A DNA stretch of 64,000 nucleotides from Sulfurimonas sp. CG01_land_8_20_14_3_00_36_23 (lineage in GTDB: Bacteria; Campylobacterota; Campylobacteria; Campylobacterales; Sulfurimonadaceae). The notes below the pieces were generated by a model, which worked only from the letters and a program-made list of their open reading frames with translations, had not been told where the DNA came from and made no database searches. Position numbers and translations under genes: made by a program. Positions 2,850 through 61,350 of the stretch are shown here, piece after piece (within the stretch, counting starts at the first letter, position 1; each line of letters opens with the position of its first letter). The stretch covers positions 162,330 through 226,329 of the forward strand of contig PETN01000016.1 in NCBI GenBank assembly GCA_002781365.1, given 5' to 3'.

Positions 2850-3865
2850 TATTTTAGTAACTCCAAAGCTTTTGTTTTGATTGACTTAACCTCTATCTCT
2901 TTGATAGAAAAATCATTTTTATCTATTTTGTTAATATCTACTTTTGAGGGAGATTTTATACCGATGTTCGAAGCTGTTTCATAAATCATGCGTGTTGTCG
3001 TTGGACCAAAAAGTGTGATGGAGGGAATATTTTGCGCCCATGCCATGTGTGTTGGTCCCGTGTCATTTCCTATAAGCAGATCAACCTTTGAAACCAAGTC
3101 GATGAGTTGTGTCAAAGAGAGCTTTGGTGCTAAGCTTGCATAAGTAGAGTTCTCACAAATCCACATGCCATCTTCTCTCTCTTTCTCACTTCCCCAGAGG
3201 ATGATGCAGTTTTGCCCAAGTGCATCACAAAGTTTTGCGACACACTCTTTTGGATATTTTTTAGACTCCCATGAAGCGCCTATAACAAGAAGAATATTTT
3301 TTTTATCACTAGATAAAAGAGCTTCCATCTCCGCTGTGAGTTTGGCATGTGGAAATATTGCTTCTTTGTTTAAAAGCATCTCTTGGGTTATCTCAAATCC
3401 AAGCGCGTCTGCTACTAAAAAAGTGTTTCTTGTAACAATGTTCTCATCATACGCAACATGCGAAGTGGTTTTGTAAAAAAAAGATGCCAAACCCTCTCGT
3501 GCAGAATCTTTGTCATAGCCATGTACATTCTCTCCAATGAGTCTAGCAACGAGGGCAGATTTGAGAAGTCCTTGAATGTCGATGATAAGGTTAAAAGTAC
3601 CTAAAGAGCGAAGCGCTGAAAAACTCTTCTTTAAAAGTGAAAAGCTTTTTTCTCGTTTGAGTTTTTTGAGGTTGAGCGTATGCACGGCAGAAATGAGGGG
3701 ATGATTTGTCAAAAGAGGAGCAAAAACCTCTTCTGTTATCCATTCGATTTTGGCATGTGGAAATTTTTTGTGAATAAACTGGAGTACAACGGCTGTGTTG
3801 ACAATATCTCCAAGTGCTGAGAGTCTTACTATCGCTATACGTTTTGTATCTTTTTTCATTGGCAA
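2849..3865 (-). CDS. waaC: Lipopolysaccharide heptosyltransferase I
   Basis: A glycosyltransferase family 9 protein of 338 residues that adds the first heptose to the Kdo residue of the inner core. It shows the N-terminal RLSALGDIV nucleotide-sugar fold entry and the family motif GNDTGPTHMAWA near residues 264-275. It is the first gene of a two-gene minus-strand unit with the lipid A acyltransferase. Three copies of the TCCACATGCC repeat lie inside it, read as PHA (twice) and GMW. Type I (WaaC) rather than WaaF is inferred from the N-terminal motif and length. Confidence 0.87.
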   Translation of the reverse strand: MPMKKDTKRIAIVRLSALGDIVNTAVVLQFIHKKFPHAKIEWITEEVFAPLLTNHPLISAVHTLNLKKLKREKSFSLLKKSFSALRSLGTFNLIIDIQGLLKSALVARLIGENVHGYDKDSAREGLASFFYKTTSHVAYDENIVTRNTFLVADALGFEITQEMLLNKEAIFPHAKLTAEMEALLSSDKKNILLVIGASWESKKYPKECVAKLCDALGQNCIILWGSEKEREDGMWICENSTYASLAPKLSLTQLIDLVSKVDLLIGNDTGPTHMAWAQNIPSITLFGPTTTRMIYETASNIGIKSPSKVDINKIDKNDFSIKEIEVKSIKTKALELLK

Positions 3866-3924
3866 AATTATATCTAATTTAGTTGTTTTGTAGCATAATG
3901 AGAGAAAATCTTTGGGGACTGTTT

Positions 3925-5313
3925 ATGAGAAAATTTAAAATCAAAATGATTATCTTGGCATGTGGAATCTTATTTCCACATGCCATAAATGCAGAGATAA
4001 GTGGAATAGGCTTCGCTCAGACAAACCAAGAAGCGAAAAAAGAGGCACTTGCTGATTTGGCACAGGTTATAAAAAGTGAGGTGCGTAGTAGCTTTGAATC
4101 TAGCACAACTAACACAAGTTCAAAAGCAAAGTCCAACATCAAAATAAGTTCAAACTTACCAATACTTGGAGCGGATTTCACTTTTGTAGACCGCGCTTTG
4201 GAGGTGGAAGCGAGTGTGAAACTGACTCCCCAAAAGGTAAATAGACTCTACACACAAAAACTTCAAAATCTAAACACAGAGATAAATGCACTCCTCAAAG
4301 AGGTGAACAATGCAACCACATCCACTCTGAAACTCAAGCTCTATGAAGCTATCTTTTCACTCTTAAATGAGTATGACAGATATGAGAGTGTTGCGGTTAT
4401 TTTGGGTGCAGAGCTTGCACAAAGAGCTCCAATCACAAAAGCAAAAGTACAGGTTGCGTTAGAAAAACTAAACTCAAGTATAGACTCTTTAGCGATGGCA
4501 GCTACAATCTTGGCAAAAAGTTTTACAGAAGAAAAAATCTTTGTCTATCCCCCTCTGCTTCAAAACAACACGAGTGTAGCTGAGTTTGGTTCACTTTTTC
4601 AAAAAGAGTTACTCTCCAAACTCAAAAGTGCAAAAAGCCCAAAAGATGCCTCATTCTTACTCGTTGGAGAGTACATACTCACAAAAAATGCAATGGTTTT
4701 GCACTATGCACTTTTAGATACAAAAACAAATGAAGTCGTGCGTTCAAAAACAATCAATATAAATCCACATGCTTATAAAGATGTAGTAACCCAGTCAAAA
4801 GAGGTCGATTTTGATGCACTTTTAAATGCTGGTGTAATAAGTTCAAGTGATTTAAAAGTATCTCTTAACTCTAACAGAGGAAGCGAAAATCTGCTCTTTA
4901 AGAATGAGGAGGAGATAGAACTTTTTGTAAAACTTAACAAGATGGGCTACCTCTACATCGTTGGCTACACACAGACAAAAGAGAGAAAACTCTCCTACCT
5001 TTTAGAACTCAGTGAAGGTGAGGGTGATAGTCGGTTTGTAAAGTTCGTAAATGCAGATGATGCTTCAAGATGGATAAGTCTGGGGATATTTACAATCGAG
5101 CCTCCTTTTGGAGTTGAGAGCATACAAGTTATAGCCTCAAACCAAAAAATAACTTCACTTCCACATGCCGAGTATGACGAGCAAAGCGGTTATCATATTA
5201 TCTCAAAAGATATAGAAAAAGCACTCTCACAAACTCGCGGACTCAAGAAAAAAGTGAGTCAAAAAGTAGAGATGAGTGAAGATGTTATGAGTTTTACGAC
5301 TATGAAGAAGTAA
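3925..5313 (+). CDS. Exported LPP20-like/DUF4384-type protein
   Basis: A 462-residue secreted protein if started at the ATG at 3925, which has GGGGA about 6 bases upstream and opens a clean signal peptide ending HAINA. An upstream in-frame ATG at 3883 would put a hydrophilic extension in front of that signal. The N-terminal part (QTNQEAKKEALADLAQ) resembles the LPP20 family. The C-terminal part (about residues 330-430) resembles DUF4384, a domain often found next to caspase-like proteins. No lipobox is seen. It lies 43 bases upstream of the WD40-caspase gene, so the two are probably one unit. Its molecular role is unknown. Confidence 0.7.
   Translation: MRKFKIKMIILACGILFPHAINAEISGIGFAQTNQEAKKEALADLAQVIKSEVRSSFESSTTNTSSKAKSNIKISSNLPILGADFTFVDRALEVEASVKLTPQKVNRLYTQKLQNLNTEINALLKEVNNATTSTLKLKLYEAIFSLLNEYDRYESVAVILGAELAQRAPITKAKVQVALEKLNSSIDSLAMAATILAKSFTEEKIFVYPPLLQNNTSVAEFGSLFQKELLSKLKSAKSPKDASFLLVGEYILTKNAMVLHYALLDTKTNEVVRSKTININPHAYKDVVTQSKEVDFDALLNAGVISSSDLKVSLNSNRGSENLLFKNEEEIELFVKLNKMGYLYIVGYTQTKERKLSYLLELSEGEGDSRFVKFVNADDASRWISLGIFTIEPPFGVESIQVIASNQKITSLPHAEYDEQSGYHIISKDIEKALSQTRGLKKKVSQKVEMSEDVMSFTTMKK
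3956..3985. repeat. Inverted pair of the TCCACATGCC repeat
   Basis: Two copies face each other with 12-base perfect arms (TGGCATGTGGAA and TTCCACATGCCA) and a 6-base loop. They lie entirely within the signal-peptide codons of the LPP20-like gene, about 30 bases after its start. As RNA this would be a strong hairpin near the start of the message. Confidence 0.9.
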
Positions 5314-5352
5314 AACAGTTTATTGCATCCAAAAAAACAAAAAAGGAAATAT

Positions 5353-5361
5353 CCACATGCC
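5353..5361 (+). repeat. Copy of the CCACATGCC repeat containing a start codon
   Basis: The ATG inside this copy is the start codon of the WD40-caspase gene. It sits 6 bases after an AAAAGGAAAT ribosome binding site. Confidence 0.85.
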
Positions 5362-8781: not shown

Positions 8782-9393
8782 ATGATAGCAATAGTTGATT
8801 ATAACATGGGAAATTTGGCAAGTGTAAAGAATGCATTTGCGAAGTTGGGAAAAGAGACCGTAGTTGAGAGTAATCCCGAGAATTTTAAAAAATATGAGAA
8901 GCTCATTTTGCCTGGTGTTGGTGCTTTTGGAGATGCTATGGAGCATTTAAGAGAGCGAAATATGATAGATGCTATACAAGAGTATGCCGCGAGTGGTAAA
9001 CCTATGCTAGGTATCTGTTTAGGTATGCAACTTCTCTTTGATAGTAGTGAAGAGTTTGGAGCAACACAAGGACTAGGTCTTATCAAAGGAAAAGTAGTAG
9101 CTTTTGATACAACAAAATTCTCAGAACCACTCAAAGTTCCACATATGGGGTGGAATAAAATGTTTACAAAATCACACCCTTTGTTTAAGGGTCTTGATGA
9201 GGAACACTATCTCTACTTTGTTCACTCTTTTCATGCTGTGTGCGACAACGAAGAAGATGTTATAGGAACTACGGAGTATGGCTATAAATTTGCTTCAGCT
9301 GTGGCATGTGGAAATATTTATGGTATTCAGCCTCATCCAGAGAAAAGTCACAAAAATGGACTTGCAATTTTAGAAAATTTTATCAATTTATAA
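8782..9393 (+). CDS. hisH: Imidazole glycerol phosphate synthase, glutaminase subunit HisH
   Basis: This class I glutamine amidotransferase supplies ammonia to HisF in histidine synthesis. At 203 residues it has the normal length. The catalytic triad is visible: C79 in GICLGMQ, and H185 and E187 in GIQPHPEKS. hisA follows after 22 bases and is probably cotranscribed. hisF is not in this window. One TCCACATGCC repeat near the 3' end encodes the residues ACG. Confidence 0.96.
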
Positions 9394-14024: not shown

Positions 14025-14025
14025 T

Positions 14026-17186: not shown

Positions 17187-17224
17187 GATATACTCCAAAC
17201 ACTTAATTTATATGGGTTTTTTAA

Positions 17225-18772: not shown

Positions 18773-19711
18773 ATGAACTTTGAAGATTTAAATGCGCTTG
18801 GTGCGGCGAGAGAGCCATTTTTCTTTCTCTGTGATTTTAAAGCGCAGAATCTTGAATATACTCTTTTAAAAGATTTAAAAGAGAGCGATATAGAGTTCTG
18901 TATTGATGAGAACTATCTCCAAAAAGTGCATGAACATAGATTTAAAAAAACTCCAAACCCTTTTGCAGAGTATAAAAAAAAATTTGATTTTGTGATAGAA
19001 AAAATCAAATCTGGCGAGACCTACTTACTCAACCTAACACAACCTACAAAAATAGAGACTCCACTGACCCTAAAAGAGATATATGCTCTGGCAAATGCTC
19101 ATTATAAACTGAGATATAAAGATAAGTTTGTATGCTTCTCTCCTGAAAAATTTATACAACTCTCAGGGGAAAGAATCCATACCTACCCGATGAAAGGGAC
19201 AATCGACGCTTCACTTCCACATGCCAAAGAGCAGATACTCAATAACAAAAAAGAGATGGCAGAACATGTTATGGTTGTGGATTTACTTCGAAATGATTTA
19301 TCGATTGTGGCAGAGGATGTGAAAGTTGAAGTCTTTCGATATGTTCAAACTATCGACTCTGGTGAAAAAAAACTTCTACAAGTAAGCTCACATATTAGTG
19401 GTTATGTCGGAGCCAATTGGCATGTGGAAATTGGGAATATCCTCAAAGCACTTTTGCCCGCTGGAAGTATAAGTGGCGCACCAAAAAAAAGCACATTAGA
19501 GATTATAGAAGAAGTTGAAGGGTACGAGAGAGGATACTTTAGTGGTGTTTTTGGCCTCTACGATGGAGAAAAGCTCGACAGTGGTGTTATGATTAGATTT
19601 ATAGAAAAAACTGAGGATGGTTTTATTTATAAAAGCGGTGGCGGTATAACTTTAGATAGCGATGCGATTTTAGAGTATAATGAACTCCAAGATAAAATCT
19701 ATTTGCCATAA
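18773..19711 (+). CDS. pabB: Aminodeoxychorismate synthase component I
   Basis: The chorismate-using half of p-aminobenzoate synthesis for folate. At 312 residues it holds only the catalytic chorismate-binding domain and lacks the N-terminal domain of larger family members. The PIKGT-type motif is present as YPMKGTID; its lysine is the residue typical of PabB rather than of anthranilate synthase. The C-terminal GSISGAPKKSTLEIIEEVE and the GGGIT segment complete the site. A class IV aminotransferase that could act as the lyase PabC is at about 48.4 kb. Two TCCACATGCC repeats are inside. Confidence 0.9.
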   Translation: MNFEDLNALGAAREPFFFLCDFKAQNLEYTLLKDLKESDIEFCIDENYLQKVHEHRFKKTPNPFAEYKKKFDFVIEKIKSGETYLLNLTQPTKIETPLTLKEIYALANAHYKLRYKDKFVCFSPEKFIQLSGERIHTYPMKGTIDASLPHAKEQILNNKKEMAEHVMVVDLLRNDLSIVAEDVKVEVFRYVQTIDSGEKKLLQVSSHISGYVGANWHVEIGNILKALLPAGSISGAPKKSTLEIIEEVEGYERGYFSGVFGLYDGEKLDSGVMIRFIEKTEDGFIYKSGGGITLDSDAILEYNELQDKIYLP

Positions 19712-21122: not shown

Positions 21123-21799
21123 TGAAGAAGCTACTCTTTTTATATTTTGGTGTTGGCTTCTTCCTTTTTTTGAATATTTTTTATCACTCGTTTTATGAGG
21201 CACAAGAGTTTTCCTTTTTTACATATACTCTAACTCCTCTTGGACTTTTACTGCTTTTTTACCTTTTTTCAGTGACGCTTATTTTTTTTATGCGTAAGAG
21301 TTCTATGCTTTATTTTAAAGCAAAAGAGACTCTTTTCGCCTCTACATTTGTTCACTTTTCTCTCTCTTTATCTCTTGTTTTATGCATGCAATATACAGAG
21401 TTTTTACTCTTTCAATTTGCTTATCTTCTTTTCATTGTACGTTATGAGAACAAAAGAGTAAACGTTCTCTTCTCTCTTTTGTATCTTACTTTTGTGCATC
21501 ACTCTCTGCTTCAGCTTTTTATATCTGAGTTTGTTTTTCTCTATTTTATAAATCTTTTTCTTCTCTCCTATCTCCTCTATAGGGTGGATTTAGGGATAAG
21601 AAAAGGAGACGTTTTGGCATGTGGAATCTTCTTCTTACTCCTTCTTTTTATGTGGAATATTTCTGAGGCGTTTAGATATAGTTTATATGTCTGGCTGGAT
21701 ATAGTAGATGTGCAAAATGATGCCTCACCAGTTGTCGTTTTTGCTTTAACCATCCTGCATTCATCTCTTCTCTTTTTTATAGAGTTTAAAAAAAAATGA
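21122..21799 (+). CDS. Small polytopic membrane protein of unknown function
   Basis: A 225-residue, very hydrophobic protein with about six or seven transmembrane helices, rich in Phe, Leu and Tyr. Its start codon overlaps the stop of the histidine kinase gene (TGATG), so the two are probably translated together and may form one membrane sensor. I recognise no domain. One TCCACATGCC copy inside encodes ACG. Confidence 0.7.
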   Translation: MKKLLFLYFGVGFFLFLNIFYHSFYEAQEFSFFTYTLTPLGLLLLFYLFSVTLIFFMRKSSMLYFKAKETLFASTFVHFSLSLSLVLCMQYTEFLLFQFAYLLFIVRYENKRVNVLFSLLYLTFVHHSLLQLFISEFVFLYFINLFLLSYLLYRVDLGIRKGDVLACGIFFLLLLFMWNISEAFRYSLYVWLDIVDVQNDASPVVVFALTILHSSLLFFIEFKKK

Positions 21800-21843: not shown

Positions 21844-22824
21844 ATGTATATAGAAGATTTGAAGTTCTCGTTATGGGCAGATTTTATTGAACGGGATTAT
21901 CTTGATAATGAGTTCAAAGATTTGATAAACAAGGGTGTAATAAACGGAGCAACGTCTAACCCAGCTATTTTTAAAAATGCTATCTTAAACTCTCCTGCTT
22001 ACAAAGAGCAACTCACACTTCTCAGTGCTTTTGATTCCAAAGAGAAATATGAGGCGCTTGCCATCCATGATATTACCAAAGCGGCTGATATATTAAAACC
22101 GCTTTATGATGCTGGAGATGATGGCTATGTAAGTATTGAAGTGGACCCTAGCCTTTGCGATGATGCTCTTGCCACAATTGCTGAAGGGAAGAGACTTTTT
22201 AAAAGAATAGATAAAGAAAATGTAATGATTAAAGTTCCTGCAACTCCTGCAGGCTATGAAGCGATGCGTGAACTTACCGCATGTGGAATTCCAGTGAATG
22301 CAACGCTCATCTTCAAAAAAGAACAGGCTCTTTTATGTGCCAAAGCTTTTCAAGAGGGCATCGAAATCTATGGTAAAAATGTAGATACAGTCATAAGTAT
22401 TTTCGTAAGCAGAGTAGATAGAGCATTGGATGCGTTGCTCCAAGCGCATGGGATAGAGGTCGCTTTGAGTGGTATCTATAACAGTGCGGATATTTATGCA
22501 GCTATTGAGGAGATGAAAGTACCTGGTTGCAGGACACTTTTTGCAAGTACTGGTGTGAAAGATGACTCACTTCCTCCTTACTATTACGTAAGCGGGCTTT
22601 TGGCATATAACAGTGTAAATACAGCACCAGTGAAGACCATCAAAGCTTTTCATGAAAATGGTACGAAAGAGAGAGTTTTACCACTCTCAGATGAGCTAAT
22701 TCAAAAACATTTTCTTAAAATAAAAGAGGCTGGCATAGATTTTGAAGCAGTTTTAGATGCTCAAATTGCAGATGGATTGCTAGCATTTAAAGATGCATTT
22801 AAAGATATATTGGAGGCATTATGA
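21844..22824 (+). CDS. tal: Transaldolase
   Basis: Transfers dihydroxyacetone units in the non-oxidative pentose phosphate pathway. The 326-residue barrel shows GATSNPAIFKNAI (35-47), VSIEVDPSL and the Schiff-base lysine K130 in VMIKVPATPAGYEAM, followed by NATLIF. Its stop overlaps the pilT start (ATGA). Confidence 0.93.
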   Translation: MYIEDLKFSLWADFIERDYLDNEFKDLINKGVINGATSNPAIFKNAILNSPAYKEQLTLLSAFDSKEKYEALAIHDITKAADILKPLYDAGDDGYVSIEVDPSLCDDALATIAEGKRLFKRIDKENVMIKVPATPAGYEAMRELTACGIPVNATLIFKKEQALLCAKAFQEGIEIYGKNVDTVISIFVSRVDRALDALLQAHGIEVALSGIYNSADIYAAIEEMKVPGCRTLFASTGVKDDSLPPYYYVSGLLAYNSVNTAPVKTIKAFHENGTKERVLPLSDELIQKHFLKIKEAGIDFEAVLDAQIADGLLAFKDAFKDILEAL

Positions 22825-24020
22825 GTAGTGAAGAGAAAAATTATGTAGATGCGACAAAACTGACCTATGAACAACTCAAAAAAGTTGGAAAATATTTACA
22901 AAAGATGATAGAAGTAGGTGGAAGTGACCTTCATATCAAAGCGAATGCTGTTGTTCGTGCTAGAATCAATGGAAATATTGTCCAGTTCGGTGGTGGCATA
23001 TTTGCAAAAGAGGATGCACTCACTTTTGTAAAAGAGATATTAAAAGGAAGATATGCTGAATTTGTTGAGAAAAAAGAGATAGATTTTGTCTATCCTTTTA
23101 GCGACACAAGCCGTTTTCGTGTCAATATATTTTTTCAAATGGATGGAATCTCTGCGGTTTTTCGTACAATTCCTGTTAAAATTCCAGCAATGAGCGAGTT
23201 ACATCTTCCTGATATTATTCAAAAGTTTACACAACTCGAACGTGGTTTAGTTTTGGTTACGGGAGTTACAGGAAGTGGTAAATCTACAACTTTGGCTTCG
23301 ATGATTAATGAGATAAATCTTACAAAAAAGAAACATATTATTACCATTGAAGATCCAATCGAATTTGTTCATAAAGATAGAGGATGTATCATTAACCAGC
23401 GTTCAGTAGGACAAGATACGCTCTCCTTTGGAACAGCGCTTCGAGCTGCTCTTCGTGAAGACCCAGATATTATCTTAGTTGGAGAGATGCGAGATCGTGA
23501 GACAATCAACTTGGCACTTCATGCCGCAGATACAGGACACTTGGTTTTCTCAACACTTCATACCATAGATGCAAAAGAGACAATTAACCGTATTATTGCA
23601 ACATTCTCTACAGAAGAACAAAATCGTATTCGACTCTCCTTAGCAGGAGTAATCCAAGGTGTGGTATCTCAGCGTCTCATCCCAACTGTGGACTCAAAAC
23701 GTAGAGCTGCTGTTGAAGTTCTCGTTCGTACACCGACGATTGAAAAACTTATCATGGAAAATCGTGATTATGAAATTCGTGATGTTATCGAAAAAGGGAG
23801 AGAACACTATAAGTCCCAAAGTTTTGACCAATCCATCTTAGATCTTTATAATGAGGGAGTTATCTCAAAAGAGATGGCTTTAGAACATGCTACTAGTGCT
23901 GCTGACTTAGAACTTAGAATGAGTGGTTTAACAGCTGGAAAACTCTCTGAGCAAAACGGTGATACAAAAAATGGAGCGATAAGATTAGAGTCTAGGGATG
24001 ATATTTTTGATTTGAAATAG
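22821..24020 (+). CDS. pilT: PilT-type retraction/secretion ATPase
   Basis: A hexameric ATPase of the PilT/GspE family, cytoplasmic, which powers retraction of type IV pili or related competence filaments. At 399 residues it is a little longer than typical PilT. The Walker A motif is GVTGSGKST (148-156). The Asp box ITIEDPIEF, Walker [13 protein letters not shown] and the His box [15 protein letters not shown] are all present. No other pilus gene is in this window and it is coupled to tal by a four-base overlap. It matters here because the window carries an uptake-sequence-like repeat. Confidence 0.9.
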
Positions 24021-24639: not shown

Positions 24640-25197
24640 ATGCTCATAGTCGGACTAGGAAATCCTGGAACGACTTATGAACACAACCGCCATAACATAG
24701 GTTTTATGGTGATTGATGCACTTATAAAAAGATTTGGTGCTCAAAAACTCTCCTCCTCATCGTTTAAAGGTGAACTTTTTAAATTTTCTCAAAATTTTCT
24801 TTTAAAACCACTTACATATATGAACCTCTCTGGTGAATCTATCCAAGCTGTTAAAAATTTTTATAAAATTGAACAAGTTGTTGTCATCCATGATGATTTA
24901 GATTTGCCTTTTGGAACACTTCGATTTAAACATGGTGGCGGTCATGGCGGTCATAACGGCTTAAAGTCTGCAGATGAGAAGATTTCTCAAGAGTATATAC
25001 GCATCCGTATGGGCATAGGAAAACCAGAGCATAAAGGGGAAGTTGCATCTTATGTTTTAAGTGACTTTAATGCCCCAGAAGAGAAGCATCTTGGCATGTG
25101 GATTTCTCATGTTTGTGATGCAGTTGAGTATTTACTACAAAATTCTTTAGAAGATACAAGTAGCCAATTTACAATTAAAAAATTTCAGCTAAAATAG
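24640..25197 (+). CDS. pth: Peptidyl-tRNA hydrolase
   Basis: Recycles tRNA from prematurely released peptidyl-tRNA. The 185-residue protein shows VGLGNPGTTYEHNRHNIGF with the catalytic histidine at residue 18, the conserved IHDDLDLPFG, and GGGHGGHNGLKS. It sits between rplY and the LptF/G permease. One repeat copy encodes GMW. Confidence 0.95.
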   Translation: MLIVGLGNPGTTYEHNRHNIGFMVIDALIKRFGAQKLSSSSFKGELFKFSQNFLLKPLTYMNLSGESIQAVKNFYKIEQVVVIHDDLDLPFGTLRFKHGGGHGGHNGLKSADEKISQEYIRIRMGIGKPEHKGEVASYVLSDFNAPEEKHLGMWISHVCDAVEYLLQNSLEDTSSQFTIKKFQLK

Positions 25198-26342: not shown

Positions 26343-27554
26343 ATGATAAATTTTAAAGAACTCGCAAGCGAATATAAAACCCCATTATATGTATATGACC
26401 TAGACTATATGAGCGCTCAGTATCAGAAACTCAAAGAGGCATTTAAGGCAAAGAAATCGATTTTGGCGTATGCAGTCAAAGCAAACTCAAACCTAAGTGT
26501 TGTGAAGCATTTCGCAACTTTAGGAGCAGGTGCTGACTGTGTCTCTATCGGTGAAGTACGCCGTGCATTTTTAGCAGGTATCCCAAAGTATAAGATTATT
26601 TTTTCAGGAGTCGGCAAGAGTGATGATGAGATACGAGAAGCGATTCAAAAAGATATTTTATATATCAATGTTGAGAGTGAAGCAGAGTTAGCAAGAGTAA
26701 ACTTGATAGCAAAAGAGCTAGATTCCACATGCCGAATAAGCATACGCGTCAATCCAAATATTGACCCAAAAACACACCCTTATATCTCAACAGGTCTGCA
26801 TGACAATAAATTTGGAGTAGATTTAAATAGTGCAAAAAGAATGTATATTTTTGCAAATAACTCTGAGCATCTAGACCCAGTTGGAATCCACTTTCATATT
26901 GGTTCACAGCTTACACAGCTTCAGCCGATTCGTGAATCAGCAGAAATAGTCGCAGACTTGGTGCGTTCACTTCAAAAAATCAATATAGAGTTAAAGTTCT
27001 TTGATATAGGTGGCGGGATAGGTGTGAAGTATGATGATGAAACAACCATTAAGCCTTACGACTATGCACAAGCAATTTTAGGGACACTTACTGCGCTTGA
27101 CTTGACTGTTATTTGTGAGCCAGGAAGATTTTTAACTGCAAATGCGGGTTATTTTTTGACAAAAGTTTTATATGAAAAACAAAATGGTGATAAGAAGTTT
27201 GTCGTTGTCGATGGTGCTATGAATGACCTGCTCCGTCCTGCTCTTTATGGAGCATACCACAAAATAGAAGCAATCACAGAGAGTACCTCGGAACCTAGAG
27301 CTGTTGATGTTGTTGGTCCAGTGTGTGAGAGTGGAGATTTCTTTGCCAAAAATTATCTTCTTCCAGAGTTACAGCACAATGATTTGTTAGTGATTCACAG
27401 TGCAGGTTCTTACGGCTTTGGAATGGGGAGCAACTACAACACCAGAGGCAGAAGTGCTGAAGTTGCAGTGCAAAATGGCGAAGTAAAACTCATTCGAAGA
27501 CGAGAGAGTTTTGAAGATTTAGTCGCTCTTGAATTAGAGTTTTTGGAAGATTAA
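26343..27554 (+). CDS. lysA: Diaminopimelate decarboxylase
   Basis: Makes lysine from meso-diaminopimelate with pyridoxal phosphate. The 403 residues include the cofactor lysine K46 in YAVKANSN, GADCVSIGE, HFHIGSQ, GGGIGVKY, CEPGRFLTANAG and VCESGDFF with the cysteine from the partner subunit. The TAGAAT at 26312 may be a -10 box. It heads a run of lysA, HAD phosphatase, pheA and hisC. Confidence 0.96.
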   Translation: MINFKELASEYKTPLYVYDLDYMSAQYQKLKEAFKAKKSILAYAVKANSNLSVVKHFATLGAGADCVSIGEVRRAFLAGIPKYKIIFSGVGKSDDEIREAIQKDILYINVESEAELARVNLIAKELDSTCRISIRVNPNIDPKTHPYISTGLHDNKFGVDLNSAKRMYIFANNSEHLDPVGIHFHIGSQLTQLQPIRESAEIVADLVRSLQKINIELKFFDIGGGIGVKYDDETTIKPYDYAQAILGTLTALDLTVICEPGRFLTANAGYFLTKVLYEKQNGDKKFVVVDGAMNDLLRPALYGAYHKIEAITESTSEPRAVDVVGPVCESGDFFAKNYLLPELQHNDLLVIHSAGSYGFGMGSNYNTRGRSAEVAVQNGEVKLIRRRESFEDLVALELEFLED

Positions 27555-38735: not shown

Positions 38736-39919
38736 GTTACGATTTCAAAACTTCCACATGCCGAGAAAAGACAAATGCCGAGAAATATACTTTAAGAGAG
38801 AGCCTCTTTGGAACCGAGGATGTTATGCCTGTTTGGGTTGCAGATATGGATATAGATACTCCTGATTTTGTGCTTGATGCAGTCAAAGAGAGACTCAAAC
38901 ATCCTGTGATTGGCTATGAAGAGATACCTGAGAGCACATTTTTAGCGCAGATAGAGTGGATGAAGCGGGAGCATGGCGTAGCGTTTGAACTCCAAGATAT
39001 CTTCTACTCACACTCCGTAGTAGCGAGTATGAGTGCGGCGATTGAAGCTTTTAGTAAAGTGGGCGATAAGGTGATTGTACAAACACCCGTCTATCCACCT
39101 TTCTTTCATAGTGTTGCACACTCTAAGCGAGAACTCCTCAAAAATCCCCTAAAGCTTTTGGCATGTGGAAATTACACTTTTGATATAGAGGATTTAAAAT
39201 CTAAAATAGATGAGAAGACAAAACTTCTTCTGCTCTGCTCTCCACACAATCCAGTAGGAAGAGTCTGGAGAAGAGAGGAACTTGAAGCGATTCTTGCACT
39301 CTGTTTAGAACACAATATCGTAGTTTTTTCCGATGAGATTCACTCCGATTTGGTTTATGCGCCTAACAAACATATCCCCTTTGCTTCGCTCTCTCCTGAG
39401 GCGAGAGAAATTACGCTCACAGCAATTGGCGTAGGAAAAACATTTAATATGGCAGGCTTTGCGATGAGTAGTGTGGCGATACCAAATGAGGGTCTGAAAA
39501 AGAGGTTTGCAGAGGTGTACGAGCGGATTCATTTTGCAAACGGAAGTCTGCTTTCGCATGTCGCTTTTGAGGCAGCTTATCTCAATGGTAAAGCGTGGTT
39601 AGAGGATTTGAAACTCCATCTCAGAGCAAATTTTGAGATGCTTCAAGTGCTTTGTGAAAAGTTTCCACATGCCATAAAGATAACGCCTGTTGAGGCAACC
39701 TATTTGGCTTGGCTTGATTGCAGGGGTATGGGACTTAGAGATAAAGCCTTACGAGAGTTCTTTGTAGAAGAGGCAAAACTAGGACTCAACCCTGGAATTA
39801 GCTTTGGTAGGGAAGGAAGTGGCTTTATGCGCTTGAATTTTGCCATAAGCTCTGCTAAAATGTCACAACTTATAAAGCAACTCGAAAATGCTTTAACAAA
39901 ACAGAGGGAACTTGGATGA
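38732..39919 (+). CDS. ovoB: MalY/PatB-type pyridoxal phosphate C-S lyase, probable OvoB
   Basis: The ATG at 38732 overlaps the ovoA stop (ATGA) and has GGAG upstream. A GTG at 38720 is less likely. The 395 residues show the MalY/PatB pattern: VWVADMDIDTP, CSPHNPVGRVW, FSDEIHSDL and the cofactor lysine K236 in GVGKTFNMAGF. OvoB of other bacteria is a lyase of this type that cleaves the histidylcysteine sulfoxide to 5-thiohistidine. The coupling to ovoA makes that role far more likely than cystathionine lyase. Three copies of the TCCACATGCC repeat are inside. Confidence 0.88.
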   Translation: MSYDFKTSTCREKTNAEKYTLRESLFGTEDVMPVWVADMDIDTPDFVLDAVKERLKHPVIGYEEIPESTFLAQIEWMKREHGVAFELQDIFYSHSVVASMSAAIEAFSKVGDKVIVQTPVYPPFFHSVAHSKRELLKNPLKLLACGNYTFDIEDLKSKIDEKTKLLLLCSPHNPVGRVWRREELEAILALCLEHNIVVFSDEIHSDLVYAPNKHIPFASLSPEAREITLTAIGVGKTFNMAGFAMSSVAIPNEGLKKRFAEVYERIHFANGSLLSHVAFEAAYLNGKAWLEDLKLHLRANFEMLQVLCEKFPHAIKITPVEATYLAWLDCRGMGLRDKALREFFVEEAKLGLNPGISFGREGSGFMRLNFAISSAKMSQLIKQLENALTKQRELG

Positions 39920-40146: not shown

Positions 40147-40568
40147 GTAAAGAGCTAGAAAAAATAAACTCCTTTTTAGAAGAACATCATGTAATGAGTT
40201 TGGCTACGACGCATGCAGATGAGCTGAGTGTTTGTAGTCTTTTTTATACCTTCCATTTAGAGACAACCTCATTTATCGTTGCAAGCAGTGAAGACACAAC
40301 CCACATACAACATATCAAACACAATCAAAATGTAGCTGGAAATATACTTTTAGAGACAAAAAACATAGGCAAAATAGAGGGTGTTCAGTTTAGAGGTACA
40401 TTCTCAGCTCTGCAAGAGGAGCGACTCAAAGCGCTCTATTTTCAAAAGTTTCCACATGCCAGAATTATGAACCCAAAACTGTGGCAAATCCAAGTGAACT
40501 CCTTCAAGATGACAGATAACACTCTGGGCTTTGGAAAAAAGATTATTTGGAAAAAACCTTTTCTTTAA
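40143..40568 (+). CDS. Pyridoxamine 5'-phosphate oxidase-like (YhbP-type) protein
   Basis: A 141-residue single split-barrel protein: MSLATTHADELSVCSLFYTF, then FIVASSEDTTHIQHIKHNQNVAGNI, then GVQFRGTFSAL. These are typical of the flavin/heme-binding PNPOx-like superfamily and closest to the YhbP/UPF0306 group. The cofactor and reaction are unknown. It is the last gene of the ovoA unit and its 3' end overlaps a small antisense zinc-finger gene by 26 bases. One repeat copy encodes PHA. Confidence 0.78.
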   Translation: MSKELEKINSFLEEHHVMSLATTHADELSVCSLFYTFHLETTSFIVASSEDTTHIQHIKHNQNVAGNILLETKNIGKIEGVQFRGTFSALQEERLKALYFQKFPHARIMNPKLWQIQVNSFKMTDNTLGFGKKIIWKKPFL

Positions 40569-47268: not shown

Positions 47269-47305
47269 GTTAAAAGCTGTTTAAATAACAAATTCTGGGA
47301 GAATT

Positions 47306-47314
47306 CCACATGCC
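47306..47314 (+). repeat. Intergenic copy of the CCACATGCC repeat
   Basis: A single full copy (GAATTCCACATGCCAAAAATA) between the divergent ctpA and cysK genes, upstream of both -10 boxes. Confidence 0.85.
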
Positions 47315-48354: not shown

Positions 48355-48928
48355 AAGCTATTTTGAAACCATTAAAGCGGTGGATGGAAAACTTTTCCAC
48401 ATGCCATACCATCAACAACGCTATGAGGCTGCGTTAAAAACGCTAGGCATATCGGATATTAAAAATCTTCAAGAGTATATAAAGCCTCCTGAGTGGGGCT
48501 TATACAGATGCCGTGTGGTCTATAACGAGAATGAAATCAAGGTAACGTATCATCCCTACAAAAAGAGAGAGGTTCGCTCTTTAAAACTTCTTTTTAACAA
48601 CGAGATTGAGTACGCTTTAAAATCTACTGACAGAGATGCTTTAGATGCCTTATATGCACAGAGAGATGAAGCAGATGATGTGCTGATCATAAAAAATTTA
48701 TTAGTGTGTGACACGACGATTGCAAACATCGCTTTTTATCGTTTGGGCATGTGGATTACTCCAAAGAGTCCACTTTTAAAAGGGACTACAAGAGCGAGAT
48801 TGCTGGATGAGGGAAAGCTTATTGAAGCTGATATTAACGCAAATGAACTCAGAACTTTTTCACAAGTGGCTCTGCTAAACGCTATGATAGATTTTGAGAT
48901 ACTCGACAAATGTGAATTTTTGCTATAA
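48344..48928 (+). CDS. pabC: Class IV aminotransferase, possible aminodeoxychorismate lyase PabC
   Basis: A short (194 residues against about 270) fold-type IV pyridoxal phosphate protein: YFETIKAVDGKLFHMPYHQQR, RCRVVY, the lysine in EYALKSTDRDALDALY, the loop NLLVCDTTIANIAFYRLGMW and KGTTRARLLDEGK. This is the layout of PabC/branched-chain transaminases. The chromosome also has a stand-alone pabB here (18.8 kb), so the lyase role is a reasonable inference. Two repeat copies encode HMP and GMW. Confidence 0.8.
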   Translation: MMNKSYFETIKAVDGKLFHMPYHQQRYEAALKTLGISDIKNLQEYIKPPEWGLYRCRVVYNENEIKVTYHPYKKREVRSLKLLFNNEIEYALKSTDRDALDALYAQRDEADDVLIIKNLLVCDTTIANIAFYRLGMWITPKSPLLKGTTRARLLDEGKLIEADINANELRTFSQVALLNAMIDFEILDKCEFLL

Positions 48929-52512: not shown

Positions 52513-53333
52513 ATCGACTCTTTGTATCTTACAAGCCTGCGGGCATAGGCTCAAATCTATTTTTATCTAAATTAAAAAGAAAATATAACAATAAAAAATG
52601 TGGTTTTTCTGGAACACTTGACCCTTTTGCAAAAGGAGTGCTACTTATCGGGTTTGGTACACACACGAAGCTTTTTCGTTTTTTGGATAAGAGTCCAAAA
52701 ACATATAGAGCAACACTTTGGCTTGGCGCAAAAAGTGATAGTCTCGATACTGAGATGATTGAGCATGTGGAAATAATTCAAGAATTTGGGCATGTGGAAA
52801 TAGAAAATGCTATCAAATCCTTAGAAGGAACTCTTGAATACGAACCTCCAATATTTAGTGCTAAGAAGATAAATGGTCAGCGTGCTTACGATTTAGCAAG
52901 AGCAGGAAAAGAGGTGCATCTCAATAAAATCACTTCGACGATAACGCAAGCCAAACTTCTCAACTACTCGCACCCTTTTGTGACGTTTGAAGCAACTGTC
53001 TCAGAGGGGACATATATTCGCTCTTTAGGTCGGATTGTAGCGAAGAGGCTTGGTGTTGAACATGGAAGTCTGAGCGCTTTAGAGAGACTCTCTGAGGGAG
53101 CCTTTACATATAATAATGAAGAAGTTCTAGATATTAAAAAATCTTTGAATATTCCTAAGAATAGCTACCTTGGAGATTCTGAGAATGTCAAATATGGAAG
53201 AGTTCTTGCTTTAGAAGATTTAGAAATACAAAAAGATGGTTGTTACTGGCTAGATAATGGAGATAATATCTCTATCATCACTATAGAGGACAAACACGTA
53301 AAATATGAATTAGGCAGGATATACACATGTTAG
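52509..53333 (+). CDS. truB: tRNA pseudouridine(55) synthase
   Basis: Makes the pseudouridine in the T-loop of tRNAs. The 274 residues show the catalytic aspartate in GFSGTLDPFAKGVLLIGFG, RAYDLARAGKEV and GTYIRSLGRI. It overlaps the helicase by four bases and csrA by seven. One full and one near repeat copy are close together inside (52763-52797), read as HVE twice. Confidence 0.94.
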   Translation: MNRLFVSYKPAGIGSNLFLSKLKRKYNNKKCGFSGTLDPFAKGVLLIGFGTHTKLFRFLDKSPKTYRATLWLGAKSDSLDTEMIEHVEIIQEFGHVEIENAIKSLEGTLEYEPPIFSAKKINGQRAYDLARAGKEVHLNKITSTITQAKLLNYSHPFVTFEATVSEGTYIRSLGRIVAKRLGVEHGSLSALERLSEGAFTYNNEEVLDIKKSLNIPKNSYLGDSENVKYGRVLALEDLEIQKDGCYWLDNGDNISIITIEDKHVKYELGRIYTC

Positions 53334-56350: not shown

Positions 56351-57073
56351 ATGAAAATTTTAGATATATACAATTTCCTTGATACGCTTTCTCCTTTTGA
56401 ACTTCAAGAGAGTTGGGATAACTCAGGCTTGTTGATAGGAGATTTTTCAGGAGATGTAAAAAAAGTAGTTTTAAGTATAGACGTAGATGAAAAGTTAATC
56501 GATTCACTTGATAACCATACACTTTTAATAACACATCATCCAATTATTTTTGGTGGATTAAAGCAGTTGGAATTTAGTAAATATCCTGCAAATTTAATCC
56601 AAAAAATGATTCAGAAAAATATCTCCAATATTGCAATGCATACGAATTTTGACCAAACACATCTTAATGATTATGTGGTGAGTGAAATTTTAGGATATAA
56701 AATAGTGCAAAAAGATGGATTTGTTGCATATTTTGATATTGATGAAAATTTTGATACTTTTTCTAAAAAAGTTGCTTTAGCTTTTGGACTTCCACATGCC
56801 AAATGTGTAAAATGTAGCGAGAGAGTTAAAAGGGTTGCTTTGACAACAGGCTCAGGCTGTTCACTTCTTCGTTCTATTGAAGCAGATTGCTTTTTAACAG
56901 GCGATGTAAAGTACCATGATGCGATGGAAGCAAAAAGTATAAAATTGTCACTTATTGATATCGGACATTATGAAAGTGAACACTTTTTTTCACAAATTTT
57001 AGAGAAGCATTTGAAAAATTTAGGTTTAGAAGTTATAATTTCATCATCAGAAAATCCATTCACCTATATTTAG
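56351..57073 (+). CDS. Nif3-like dinuclear metal-centre protein (DUF34/YbgI)
   Basis: The 240 residues show LQESWDNSGLLIG, the metal-binding LLITHHPIIFGGLK, MHTNFDQ and the C-terminal GDVKYHDAMEAKSIKLSLIDIGHYESE. Family members may act as GTP cyclohydrolase-like or nicotinate-related hydrolases, but the function is not settled. It is followed 49 bases later by the zinc-ribbon gene, an association common in this phylum. One repeat copy encodes PHA. Confidence 0.9.
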   Translation: MKILDIYNFLDTLSPFELQESWDNSGLLIGDFSGDVKKVVLSIDVDEKLIDSLDNHTLLITHHPIIFGGLKQLEFSKYPANLIQKMIQKNISNIAMHTNFDQTHLNDYVVSEILGYKIVQKDGFVAYFDIDENFDTFSKKVALAFGLPHAKCVKCSERVKRVALTTGSGCSLLRSIEADCFLTGDVKYHDAMEAKSIKLSLIDIGHYESEHFFSQILEKHLKNLGLEVIISSSENPFTYI

Positions 57074-57839: not shown

Positions 57840-59006
57840 TTGAAGCCATTTACTCTGCTCTATTATATTTTAAGTGTTCTGCTCTACTTTGTAGCAGTGC
57901 CACTTTTAATATATTTATCATTTAAAAAAAAGTATAGACACTCTATCCCCTCTCGTTTTTTTCTTTTTAACAATCCAAGATTTAAAATTGAAAATGGTAT
58001 ATGGTTCCATGTCTGCTCTCTTGGAGAAGCACGAGCCCTTAAACCCATTCTGACTCTACTATCGGGAAATGAGATAAGCATTACAACCATAACCCATACA
58101 GGCTATGCAGAAGCTAAAAAATACAGCGCGGATGTTCGCTATTTACCTTATGAAATGTTTTTACCTTTTTGGATTAAAAAGCAGAGAGTTGTTGTTGTTT
58201 TAGAAGCGGAACTTTGGTATATGCTTATGAGTGTTGTCAGAGCTAAAGGTGGAAGAGTTATTTTACTCAATGCGCGTATCTCTGAAAAAAGCGTGGATAA
58301 ATATTTACAATTTGCCTGGTTTTATAAAAAACTTTTATGGCATGTGGAAATGATATACGCACAAAGTGAAGCTGATAAAAATCGTTTTTTAGCTCTCGGG
58401 GCAAAACATGTCGAAGTCATCGGTAATATAAAGCTTGCAGGTGAAATAGTTAAAACAAAAAGCTATGAAAAACCAGAGAGAGAGTGCATCGTTGCAGGAA
58501 GCACCCATGCAGGCGAAGAAGAGTCGATCTTAAAAGCTTTTGTAGAGTATAAAAAACAGGGTGACTCAATCCTTATAGTTGTGCCAAGACATCCAGAGCG
58601 ATTTGAGAGTGTTTATGCGTTGATGCAAGAGTACGCAAAGAGAAACGCTTTGACACTCTCAAAGTTCTCAGAGGGTGCAGAGTTGAAGAGTGATTTAGTT
58701 TTAGTAGATGTGATGGGTGAACTCAATAACATCTATGCAATCAGTGATATAGCGATACTCGGTGGTGCATTTAAAGAGGATGTTGGTGGACACAATCCAC
58801 TCGAACCAGCCTATTTTGGCTGTAAAATTATCACTGGTAAACATTTCTTCCATCAAAAAGAGCTCTTTAAATATGTACATCATGTACAGTATGTTGAGCC
58901 GGATGAAATTCATAAAGCACTTATGGCATGTGGAAGTTTACCGCCGTCGATGGTTGAAGAGAAAATAGATTTACAACCTGTTATAGAAAAAATATTAGAA
59001 AAATAG
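57840..59006 (+). CDS. waaA: 3-deoxy-D-manno-octulosonic acid transferase
   Basis: Adds Kdo to lipid A precursor. The 388 residues have an N-terminal membrane anchor (about 5-28), WFHVCSLGEARALKPIL, the nucleotide-binding C-terminal half with AGSTHAGEEE, and ILGGAFKEDVGGHNPLEPAYFG. The start is TTG three bases after the previous stop. Together with waaC and the lpxL-like gene at the left edge it shows a standard inner core. Two repeat copies lie inside (HVE, ACG). Confidence 0.92.
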   Translation: MKPFTLLYYILSVLLYFVAVPLLIYLSFKKKYRHSIPSRFFLFNNPRFKIENGIWFHVCSLGEARALKPILTLLSGNEISITTITHTGYAEAKKYSADVRYLPYEMFLPFWIKKQRVVVVLEAELWYMLMSVVRAKGGRVILLNARISEKSVDKYLQFAWFYKKLLWHVEMIYAQSEADKNRFLALGAKHVEVIGNIKLAGEIVKTKSYEKPERECIVAGSTHAGEEESILKAFVEYKKQGDSILIVVPRHPERFESVYALMQEYAKRNALTLSKFSEGAELKSDLVLVDVMGELNNIYAISDIAILGGAFKEDVGGHNPLEPAYFGCKIITGKHFFHQKELFKYVHHVQYVEPDEIHKALMACGSLPPSMVEEKIDLQPVIEKILEK

Positions 59007-59906: not shown

Positions 59907-59948
59907 TCGCAACTTTTTACATTTAAAAAATATATAGCAGGAGAGAGT

Positions 59949-61295
59949 ATGTTTAATACATTAACAGAGTCATTTACATCAGCAATTAAGAAAATTCGTT
60001 TTCATGATGATGATAAAGCGCTCTCGAAAGCTCTCCTTGAATTAAAGAAAAATCTCTTAAAAGCAGATGTAAACCACAAAGTTGTAAAAGAGTTAATAGA
60101 AAAAGTTCAATACGACACGAAAGCAAATGGAATTGGGAAAGACCAGTTTTTAGATGCACTTCGAAAAGCTTTGTATGAGTTACTAGAGATTGGTGGAAGT
60201 AAAGGTTTTATATTTGCTCCGAACCCTCCAACTGTTATCTTAATGACAGGACTTCAAGGTTCTGGTAAAACTACAACAACAGGTAAGTTAGCAAACTATT
60301 TAAAAAATAAACAGAAAAAAGTGATGATTGTTGCTGCCGATTTACAGCGTTTAGCTGGAGTCGAACAACTTCGCCAAATTTCAGCTCAAATAGAAGTAGA
60401 GCTCTATGAAGATGAAACTTCTAAGAACCCTGTTGAAGTAGTAAATGCAGCACTTAAAAAAGCAAGAAATGGTATCTATGATGTTGTTTTAATTGATACA
60501 GCTGGCCGTTTAGCTATTGATGATGCGTTAATGAATGAACTTGAAGCTGTCAAAAAAGCAGCAAATCCAAGTGAGATTTTTTATGTTGCAGACTCTTTAA
60601 CTGGTCAGGATGCGATAAAAACAGCAACAAGCTTTAAAGAGAAAATAGGTATTGATGGCGTTATATTAAGTAAATATGACGGTGACTCTAAGGGTGGAAT
60701 CGCTTTAGGTCTTTCCAGCCAAGTTCAAGTGCCACTTCGTTTTATCGGTAGCGGTGAAAAGATGCAAGACTTAGAAGTTTTTATACCAGAACGAATAGTA
60801 AATCGTCTTATGGGCTTTGGAGATATCGAAGGTCTTGCAGAGAAAACTTCTTCTGCAATAGATGAAGCACAAGCTAAAAAACTTACAAAAAAGATTCAAA
60901 AAGGTAAGTTTAACTATAATGACTTTTTAGAACAGATGGAAAGTATGAAAAAAATGGGTAGCATGAGCTCTCTTATGGGAATGATTCCAGGAATGGGGAA
61001 CATGTCTAAAGCCATTAAAGACTTTGATTTTGAAAACTCTAGCGAGCTTAAAAATATAAAAGCAATGGTCTCTTCCATGACGCTAAAAGAGAGAGAAAAT
61101 CCAGAACTTTTAAATAACTCAAGAAAACAGAGAATCGCTGCGGGTTGTGGCCTTACTCAGGTTGAAATCAACAGAATGATTAAACAGTTTAAAAATGCTG
61201 GGAAAATGGCTAAAAAATTCTCTGGACCAAAAGGAATGAAAGATCTTCAAGCTATGATGGGGCAGATGGGTGGAGCTGGAGCAATTCCAAGGTAA
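59949..61295 (+). CDS. ffh: Signal recognition particle protein Ffh
   Basis: The GTPase that targets nascent membrane proteins to FtsY. The 448 residues comprise an N domain, a G domain with TGLQGSGKTTTTGKLA, DLQRLAGVEQL, DTAGRL and SKYDGDSKGG, and a methionine-rich M domain (about 300-448). It is ended by a large inverted repeat built of two TCCACATGCC copies. The SRP RNA gene is not recognised in this window. Confidence 0.97.
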   Translation: MFNTLTESFTSAIKKIRFHDDDKALSKALLELKKNLLKADVNHKVVKELIEKVQYDTKANGIGKDQFLDALRKALYELLEIGGSKGFIFAPNPPTVILMTGLQGSGKTTTTGKLANYLKNKQKKVMIVAADLQRLAGVEQLRQISAQIEVELYEDETSKNPVEVVNAALKKARNGIYDVVLIDTAGRLAIDDALMNELEAVKKAANPSEIFYVADSLTGQDAIKTATSFKEKIGIDGVILSKYDGDSKGGIALGLSSQVQVPLRFIGSGEKMQDLEVFIPERIVNRLMGFGDIEGLAEKTSSAIDEAQAKKLTKKIQKGKFNYNDFLEQMESMKKMGSMSSLMGMIPGMGNMSKAIKDFDFENSSELKNIKAMVSSMTLKERENPELLNNSRKQRIAAGCGLTQVEINRMIKQFKNAGKMAKKFSGPKGMKDLQAMMGQMGGAGAIPR

Positions 61296-61298
61296 CTT

Positions 61299-61350
61299 TT
61301 TGGCATGTGGAAATCCTCCTTGCTTAAGGGTGAAATTTCCACATGCCAAA
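61299..61350 (+). terminator. Likely terminator of ffh made of an inverted pair of the TCCACATGCC repeat
   Basis: Perfect 16-base arms, TTTGGCATGTGGAAAT and its complement, with a 20-base loop, begin four bases after the ffh stop. No long T run follows, so it may act as a weak or Rho-assisted terminator or stabilise the 3' end. It parallels the uptake-sequence pairs that serve as terminators in Neisseria. Confidence 0.6.

What the first reader, a model, noticed from the sequence alone, without database searches (positions are those of the whole stretch)
3161..61347. A 10-base sequence, TCCACATGCC, is repeated 30 times: candidate DNA-uptake sequence or other genome-wide signal in Campylobacterota
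Cores read on the + strand as CCACATGCC start at 3161, 3976, 5161, 5353, 19217, 26725, 28129, 36000, 36490, 38754, 39665, 40452, 47306, 48397, 56792 and 61339. Cores read as GGCATGTGG start at 3344, 3752, 3957, 9303, 19419, 21616, 25093, 37068, 39160, 48746, 52789, 58339, 58925 and 61302. By my rough estimate, at about 36% GC fewer than 0.1 copies are expected. All 30 have T before the core, and the wider consensus is about ATTTCCACATGCCAAA. Density (about one per 2 kb), strand balance, tolerance inside genes and inverted pairs used as terminators match the uptake sequences of Neisseriaceae and Pasteurellaceae. Known DNA discrimination in Campylobacter relies on methylation instead. A pilT gene is in this window. 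The uptake role is inference; a nucleoid-protein or modification site would also fit.
Basis: partly seen in the sequence, partly recalled or inferred. Interest (0 to 1): 0.95.

Follow-up and report, generated by a model that had tools for sequence, protein, structure and literature searches.

The report
Sulfurimonas DNA uptake sequence with dialects
A ten-letter DNA word occurs 887 times in this Sulfurimonas genome and related species carry different words, at a few genes in exactly the same spot; the word likely serves as a "self" tag by which these bacteria recognise and take up DNA of their own kind.

Summary
In detail: 30 exact TCCACATGCC in the window (0.09 expected) and 887 in the 2.43-Mb genome, against 1 for the reversed control. 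Of 135 genomes of the genus, 11 carry 260-1302 copies and 116 carry 13 or fewer. Other lineages carry other words: TCTACATGTA (B; at least 100 copies in 12 genomes) and CTCACGCA (D; seen in 2). Between A genomes, orthologous places keep the full 10-mer in 108 of 214 comparisons although flanks are 69% identical; B genomes have A at 0 of 162 and, at two distinct sites, exactly B. An STC tripeptide is spelled in A in three genomes and in B in another; a PHA tripeptide of panC in A in six genomes and in D in another. There is no strand or replichore bias. Two sister genomes without intact comEC (one split by an 8-kb insert, one missing) keep few exact copies, and one- and two-mismatch relics sit at the old places. 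This fits a DNA-uptake sequence maintained by natural transformation better than a Chi, nucleoid or modification site. Uptake is untested, the receptor unknown, and some genomes with comEC also have few copies. Paper searches found no such sequence in Campylobacterota.

The parts
3160..3169 (+). motif A, in ORF 2849-3865 (-)
3344..3353 (-). motif A, in ORF 2849-3865 (-), peptide FPHAK
3752..3761 (-). motif A, in ORF 2849-3865 (-), peptide FPHAK
3957..3966 (-). motif A, left arm of an inverted pair inside ORF 3883-5313 (+)
   Evidence: hairpin
3975..3984 (+). motif A, right arm of that pair, peptide FPHAI
   Evidence: hairpin
5160..5169 (+). motif A, in ORF 3883-5313 (+)
5352..5361 (+). motif A, intergenic
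9303..9312 (-). motif A, in ORF 8782-9393 (+)
19216..19225 (+). motif A, in ORF 18773-19711 (+)
19419..19428 (-). motif A, in ORF 18773-19711 (+)
21616..21625 (-). motif A, in ORF 21122-21799 (+)
22821..24020 (+). pilT/pilU-family ATPase gene (part of the proposed uptake machine, by inference)
   Evidence: PF00437; TIGR01420 above cut-off
25093..25102 (-). motif A, in ORF 24640-25197 (+)
26724..26733 (+). motif A, in ORF 26343-27554 (+)
28128..28137 (+). motif A, in ORF 27556-28332 (+)
35999..36008 (+). motif A, in ORF 35879-36664 (-)
36489..36498 (+). motif A, in ORF 35879-36664 (-)
37068..37077 (-). motif A, in ORF 36636-38735 (+)
38753..38762 (+). motif A, in ORF 38720-39919 (+)
39160..39169 (-). 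motif A, in ORF 38720-39919 (+)
39664..39673 (+). motif A, in ORF 38720-39919 (+)
40451..40460 (+). motif A, in ORF 40143-40568 (+)
47305..47314 (+). motif A, outside the called ORFs
48396..48405 (+). motif A, in ORF 48344-48928 (+)
48746..48755 (-). motif A, in ORF 48344-48928 (+)
52789..52798 (-). motif A, in ORF 52509-53333 (+)
56791..56800 (+). motif A, in ORF 56351-57073 (+)
58339..58348 (-). motif A, in ORF 57840-59006 (+)
58925..58934 (-). motif A, in ORF 57840-59006 (+)
61302..61311 (-). motif A, left arm of an inverted pair 6 bp after the end of ORF 59949-61295
   Evidence: hairpin -30 kcal/mol
61338..61347 (+). motif A, right arm of that pair

Best explanation
TCCACATGCC most likely is a DNA-uptake sequence: a short tag that a surface receptor of the type IV pilus or pseudopilus uptake machine would recognise, so that DNA of the own lineage is preferred in natural transformation. 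Shown by sequence: the word stands in hundreds of exact copies on both strands without polarity; it is kept at orthologous places in lineages that use it; other lineages of the genus use other words, at a few genes in exactly the same place; and copies have decayed in two sister genomes without intact comEC. Inferred: each lineage has a receptor with its own preference (probably a minor pilin); fragments with the word are taken up and recombined more often, so uptake bias itself spreads the word and restores mutated copies; when comEC is lost this stops and copies drift away; a change of receptor rewrites the genome to a new word. Untested: uptake preference, and which protein reads the word.
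For: Count and control; excess given the proteins, 114 against 4.8; exact copies 163 against 51 one-mismatch copies in 494 kb, the pattern that PMC1626085 gives as typical of uptake sequences (passage); no polarity; 113 of 163 in ORFs, like 65% for USS of H. influenzae (PMC1626085 passage). Dialects A and B nearly exclusive over 135 genomes; D in two. Retention in register between A genomes 108 of 214 against 0.39 expected, 0 of 162 in B, 0 of 87 in no-word genomes; B exactly in register at 2 distinct A sites; A exactly in register at 3 of 8 B sites with an ortholog. Synonymous rewriting at STC and PHA. comEC, dprA, pilT and pilins present. comEC split in G096 and absent in G149, with 141 and 183 copies against about 1300 in near kin G066 and G095; exact/one-mismatch 1/13 and 4/16 against 44/14 and 26/7; at places where A genomes have A, 1-2 mismatches in 20 of 49 comparisons there against 2 of 186 between A genomes.
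Against: No uptake data. The receptor is not found: the FimT-like pilin occurs with and without the word, and the GspF cluster is absent from complete genomes with B or D. G143, G061, G137 and G148 have few A copies with full-length comEC, and genomes without a clear word have comEC and dprA, so comEC alone does not decide. The comEC case is one pair of sister MAGs and may be one event. A is scattered on a one-gene tree. One 20-kb stretch of central-metabolism genes has a single copy. Pair counts share sites and ancestry and come mostly from two regions (T2SS-like and fusA).
Confidence: 0.85

Rival explanations
1. The word is the binding site of a chromosome-organising or regulatory protein whose specificity changed between lineages; sites are kept by direct selection.
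For: Retention at orthologous places; intergenic enrichment about threefold; B and one D form are near-palindromic, as for dimeric binders.
Against: Exact copies outnumber one-mismatch copies, unlike the relaxed consensus of regulatory sites as put in PMC1626085 (passage); most copies are inside genes; decay with comEC loss would be a coincidence.
Confidence: 0.06
2. The word is tied to DNA modification or to a mutational or repair bias, like the HIP1 palindrome of cyanobacteria (recalled).
For: Lineage-specific words; near-palindromic B and D forms.
Against: A is not a palindrome; a modification or mutation bias would not keep copies at orthologous places (108 of 214) nor enrich intergenic DNA.
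Confidence: 0.04
3. A mobile short repeat that inserts copies of itself.
For: A few short tandem arrays of 17-18 bp units.
Against: No shared sequence beyond about 17 bp; in panC the word stands in place of other codons without a gap.
Confidence: 0.02
4. A polar signal such as Chi or KOPS.
For: Short, frequent, lineage-specific words.
Against: No orientation bias.
Confidence: 0.01

Closest known systems
Uptake signal sequence (USS) of Pasteurellaceae, Hin type AAGTGCGGT and Apl type ACAAGCGGT
   Same: Copy number (10-mers of 429-1422 copies per genome in seven of the eight species of Table 2, section read), more exact than one-mismatch copies, about two thirds in genes, lineage types within one family (PMC1626085).
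   Different: Different sequence and phylum; dialects here differ more and B is near-palindromic; no flanking AT-rich segments beyond the 17-bp consensus.
DNA uptake sequence (DUS) of Neisseriaceae with the ComP receptor
   Same: Several dialects that differ between species, inverted copies (PMC3630211 passages).
   Different: Different sequence; no ComP identified here; the inverted pairs lack a U-tract.
Methylation-based discrimination of Campylobacter jejuni (CtsM, RAATTY)
   Same: Same phylum; [quoted passage not shown] The competence pilin Cj0683 is encoded just before priA; G000 has two pilin genes just before a gene that I read as priA from its sequence.
   Different: There self DNA is told by methylation of RAATTY; the word here does not contain RAATTY and is itself enriched.

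Membership tests
DNA uptake sequences (DUS/USS), as a kind | hundreds or more exact copies of a 9-12 bp word | tested here: met
   887 in 2.43 Mb, reversed control 1
DNA uptake sequences (DUS/USS), as a kind | more exact than one-mismatch copies | tested here: met
   163 against 51 (13 expected) in 494 kb
DNA uptake sequences (DUS/USS), as a kind | both strands, no polarity | tested here: met
   463/424, 81/82 by G-rich strand
DNA uptake sequences (DUS/USS), as a kind | mostly inside genes, with intergenic enrichment | tested here: met
   113 of 163 in ORFs that cover 89.5%
DNA uptake sequences (DUS/USS), as a kind | lineage-specific dialects within a taxon | tested here: met
   A, B, D
DNA uptake sequences (DUS/USS), as a kind | competence machinery in the genome | tested here: met
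   ComEC, DprA, PilT, pilins, secretin; ComEA not searched
DNA uptake sequences (DUS/USS), as a kind | maintenance depends on competence | tested here: inconclusive
   decay in G096 and G149 without intact comEC; but G143, G061, G137, G148 have few copies with full-length comEC
DNA uptake sequences (DUS/USS), as a kind | preferential uptake of DNA bearing the word | not testable with these tools
   needs a competent strain
DNA uptake sequences (DUS/USS), as a kind | cognate surface receptor (ComP, predicted ComN) | tested here: inconclusive
   FimT-like pilin is present with and without the word; co-change with the word not tested for any pilin
Neisserial DUS or Pasteurellacean USS by descent | shares their core sequence | tested here: not met
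   TCCACATGCC against AAGTGCGGT and ACAAGCGGT (section read), by inspection; neisserial DUS sequence from recall
Chi / KOPS | orientation bias along the replichore | tested here: not met
   draft contigs
Campylobacter RAATTY methylation discrimination | word contains RAATTY | tested here: not met
   by inspection of the word; motif from PMC10046745
HIP1-like palindrome | palindromic word | tested here: not met
   A is not a palindrome, by inspection; B nearly is

The most novel reading that the evidence does not exclude
Sulfurimonas evolved its own uptake-sequence system, independent of Neisseriaceae and Pasteurellaceae, with at least three dialects that are written over one another at the same genomic sites when a lineage changes receptor, partly by synonymous codons and partly by changing the protein; and mobile elements that break comEC switch the system off, after which the tags of the whole genome decay.
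Probability: 0.6. Interest if true: 0.93.

Novelty: new variant of a known kind. Interest (0 to 1): 0.86.

Why it matters
Uptake sequences are described in two proteobacterial families, and how such a system starts, changes dialect and dies is an old question. If confirmed, it would also show that Campylobacterota can tell self DNA by sequence and not only by methylation.

Tried and rejected
Presence of the FimT-like minor pilin as the explanation of the word: rejected, it occurs with and without it. The GspF/secretin (T2SS-like) cluster as the machine needed by all: rejected for B and D, since it is absent from complete G046, G059 and G054. One origin of A in one clade: not supported; on a 27-genome EF-G tree A needs 9 changes and is no more clustered than shuffled labels (one gene, 9 of 24 inner branches open), and it is also scattered on an aclA+aclB tree. 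A first EF-G tree was discarded because minus-strand hits were read wrongly; one search replaces it. A first orthology count (A to A 194 of 333) was replaced, because it included named loci that partly come from the same genomes as my G-handle loci; one search drops those 54 loci (520 A queries become 256). In one search the in-register count for D was meaningless (an 8-mer against 10-mers); one search counts it inside the 10-mer. Phages as carriers: two inverted pairs in the viral collection, in GC-rich contigs with no other copy in the stretch held, taken as chance. Depletion only in mobile DNA: not supported; an 11-kb contig without the word has a TnsA-like gene, but a 20-kb stretch of central-metabolism genes has one copy. 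Inverted pairs as classical terminators: only partly supported. De novo search in five genomes of other families (G027, G030, G034, G037, G039; 40 kb each) showed no comparable word; G034 showed an AT-rich repeat. G047, G050, G051, G009, G005, G048, G053 and G021 gave only weak candidates; G044 gave a set of 10-mers that I read as a repeated gene segment. PilT across the genus was asked for but did not complete. The library searches for earlier reports were made; preprints and most subscription papers are not held there.
Full report
What was found. The whole genome (G000; 2,427,617 bases in 102 contigs) holds 463 + 424 copies; the word read backwards occurs once. In 494 kb of this genome, window included, there are 163 copies; the 30 one-letter variants together occur 51 times where 13 are expected, 22 of these being TCCACATGCT. 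The consensus is ATTTCCACATGCCAAA with little beyond it. With proteins fixed and synonymous codons redrawn, 4.8 copies are expected in 453 ORFs against 114 seen. 113 of 163 sites lie in ORFs, which cover 89.5% of the DNA, so intergenic DNA is enriched about threefold; 61 ORF sites read with the gene and 52 against it. Frames are uneven; xPHA and xACG are the commonest peptides.

No polarity. 45 copies are on + and 43 on - in the 226-kb contig (2.3 kb of it not read), and 81 on the G-rich against 82 on the C-rich strand over 494 kb; 463/424 gives p = 0.20. This speaks against Chi, KOPS and other polar signals. Spacing is close to random (coefficient of variation 1.18 on that contig, 1.08 after merging close copies). 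Of 9 inverted pairs with a spacer up to 30 bp in the sample, 8 lie 6-29 bp after a gene end and 1 is inside an ORF. The four folded are strong hairpins, but the flanking AAA means that the RNA stem is not followed by U.

The organism. 

Distribution. Over 135 genomes of the genus, 11 carry 260-1302 copies (G000, G060, G066, G080, G081, G083, G085, G092, G093, G095, G119), 8 carry 31-183 (G061, G086, G096, G129, G137, G143, G148, G149) and 116 carry 13 or fewer. Sixteen genomes of other families in the order carry 0-7. By title, 16 of those 80 are from other taxa, and none of these holds a copy besides the pair; 54 of the 80 have three or more copies at under 45% GC.

Other words. De novo k-mer counts in 20-64 kb samples (238 kb for G043) gave TCTACATGTA (B) in G043, G052, G046 and G059, TACATGTAA in G011 and G041, and CTCACGCA in G054 and G049 (D), the latter also with CTCACGTGA. 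Counted over the genus, B reaches at least 100 copies in 12 of 135 genomes (highest 515; reversed control at most 20 per genome among those). The 11 A-rich genomes have at most 9 B, and the 12 B-rich genomes at most 11 A. B is nearly palindromic. Several genomes gave no clear word (G047, G050, G051, G009, G044 and, in smaller samples, G005, G048, G053, G021).

Orthologous places. With the motif masked in the query so that it could not steer the alignment, 500-bp fragments around sites were aligned to relatives' DNA at hand (256 A sites from 11 A genomes, of which 45 to 56 had an ortholog among A or B DNA). A to other A genomes: 108 of 214 pairs have the full 10-mer in register (41 of 56 source sites), flank identity 0.69, 0.39 expected from density. 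A to B genomes: 0 of 162 have A; 5 pairs have B exactly in register (two distinct sites once orthologous sources are merged; 0.10 expected) and 15 have B within 30 bp. B to A genomes: 7 of 45 pairs have A in register (3 of 8 source sites, 0.10 expected), 24 within 30 bp. A to no-word genomes: 0 of 87. A to D genomes: 0 of 35 have A; CTCACGCA occurs 12 times in the 16.5 kb aligned, all within 30 bp of an A site (two loci; 6 pairs at one of them exactly on the site). In the two regions compared, A to A retention (59 of 102, 48 of 97) exceeds that of decoy 10-mers in the same alignments (46 of 402, 27 of 388). Pairs share sites and ancestry and come mostly from two regions, so they are not independent.

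Two sites show the change letter by letter. In a gene near fusA the peptide STC is TCCACATGC in G093, G083 and G085 and TCTACATGT in G043. In panC, G000 and the five other A genomes aligned read CCA CAT GCC (PHA). D genome G054 reads CCT CAC GCA (also PHA, containing CTCACGCA), while D genome G049 has PQA. B genomes G043, G052 and G046 read CCA CAT GTA (PHV), which with the next base gives ACATGTAG; B genomes G059, G094 and G006 have PQA, PKA and PQV. No-word genomes G044 and G047 have PQV and PNA. In an intergenic spot upstream of fusA, the inverted A pair of A genomes is matched by two B palindromes in G006.

Machinery. G000 has ComEC (PF03772), DprA, PilT in the window, a secretin/GspF-type pseudopilus cluster and ten matches to the pilin N-terminus, nine over the cut-off. 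In 28 chosen genomes DprA is found in 27 (not G060) and ComEC in 26 (not G083, a 71%-complete bin, and G149), with or without a word. The GspF cluster has a strong match in 76 of 135 and none in complete B and D genomes G046, G059 and G054. The FimT-like minor pilin (C92) has full-length relatives through much of the genus whatever the word; its predicted fold (pLDDT 87.6) matches FimU best, but weakly (E 0.046). It is a candidate because FimT binds DNA and the related ComN/PpdA is a predicted receptor elsewhere (PMC12616744, abstract and passages). The two pilins just before a gene that I read as priA are another, because the C. jejuni competence pilin Cj0683 sits there (PMC10046745, two sections). 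Co-change with the word was not tested for either.

Loss of comEC. A genus-wide search with ComEC found a match in 126 of 135 genomes and in 78 of 79 good ones; the exception among the good ones is G149 (99% complete). In G096 (100% complete) the gene is in two pieces about 8.1 kb apart on one contig; the insert carries a TnsA-like gene, a second FimT-like pilin, a radical-SAM protein and a uracil-DNA-glycosylase-family protein. G149 and G096 are sisters on both trees and lie near G066 and G095, which have 1298 and 1302 copies; G149 and G096 have 183 and 141. In sampled DNA, exact/one-mismatch counts are 4/16 and 1/13 against 44/14 (G066), 26/7 (G095) and 163/51 (G000) (Fisher p = 3e-10 for the pairs of genomes, not corrected for shared ancestry). 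At places where an A genome has A, the comparisons of full length fall as follows: in other A genomes 108 exact, 2 with one or two mismatches, 76 with more (186 in all); in G096 and G149 2 exact, 20 with one or two, 27 with more (49 in all). The word is thus either perfect or gone where comEC is kept, and worn where it is broken. I read this as decay by point mutation once transformation stopped. Against a strict rule, G143, G061, G137 and G148 have few A copies and a full-length comEC (G148 also has 88 B), and the comEC of A-rich G066 is cut by a contig end, so its state is unknown.

Reading. An exact consensus on both strands and mostly in genes, lineage-specific words, retention and replacement at orthologous places, and wear where comEC is broken are what uptake bias predicts together, and what a regulatory, modification or polar signal does not. 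I hold this at 0.85. The uptake preference itself, the receptor, and the idea that a change of receptor drives the change of dialect are inference.

Known relatives. In number, strictness and share in genes it resembles the Pasteurellacean USS (PMC1626085, one section and passages), and in having dialects the neisserial DUS (PMC3630211, passages). Its sequence is neither Hin- nor Apl-type USS. For Campylobacter, methylation of RAATTY is the described basis of discrimination (PMC10046745, passages). The library searches for an uptake sequence in Campylobacterota or Sulfurimonas, and for the motif itself, found none (one search gave three papers, of which passages of PMC8308473 on Aliarcobacter transformation were seen); preprints and most subscription papers are not in that library.

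Noticed in passing
L382/L379 (G096:C15, about 15228-23346): comEC of G096 is split by an insert of about 8.1 kb with a TnsA-like gene, a second FimT-like pilin (not a Pfam match), a radical-SAM/B12-binding protein and a UDG-family protein, and no copy of the motif.
   Followed up: partly
G066:C19:1, G070:C3:2 and C70, G062:C88: Contig ends of several bins fall inside comEC near codons 185-200, near where G096 is interrupted; comEC may be a recurrent insertion site, or these are plain assembly breaks.
   Followed up: no
G043:C1:970134-970589: This B-dialect genome has a second, partial comEC-like stretch (residues 269-422), and one of its 11 A copies lies inside it (970181-970190), possibly imported A-lineage DNA.
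   Followed up: no
G000 C13:5-99, C86:4717-4777, C94:9-86, C75:35327-35390: Short tandem arrays of the motif with 17- or 18-bp units; two lie at contig ends.
   Followed up: no
L149 (G000 C10:1-20000): Twenty kb with dehydrogenase, fumarase, succinyl-CoA ligase and oxidoreductase-like genes (my reading of the sequences) has only one motif copy.
   Followed up: no
L151 (G000 C12, 10,965 bases): A contig without any motif copy carries a TnsA-like gene, so it may be mobile DNA.
   Followed up: partly
L138:14515-19956 (G000 C1, about 114.5-120.0 kb): A minor-pilin-like operon: two pilin-type proteins, a small membrane protein and a large surface-type protein, resembling a PilV/PilW/PilX/PilY1 set by layout.
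   Followed up: no
L212, L213 (G034:C1:100001-140000): A genome of another family in the order is very rich in AAATTTAA (107 against 33 expected in 40 kb).
   Followed up: no
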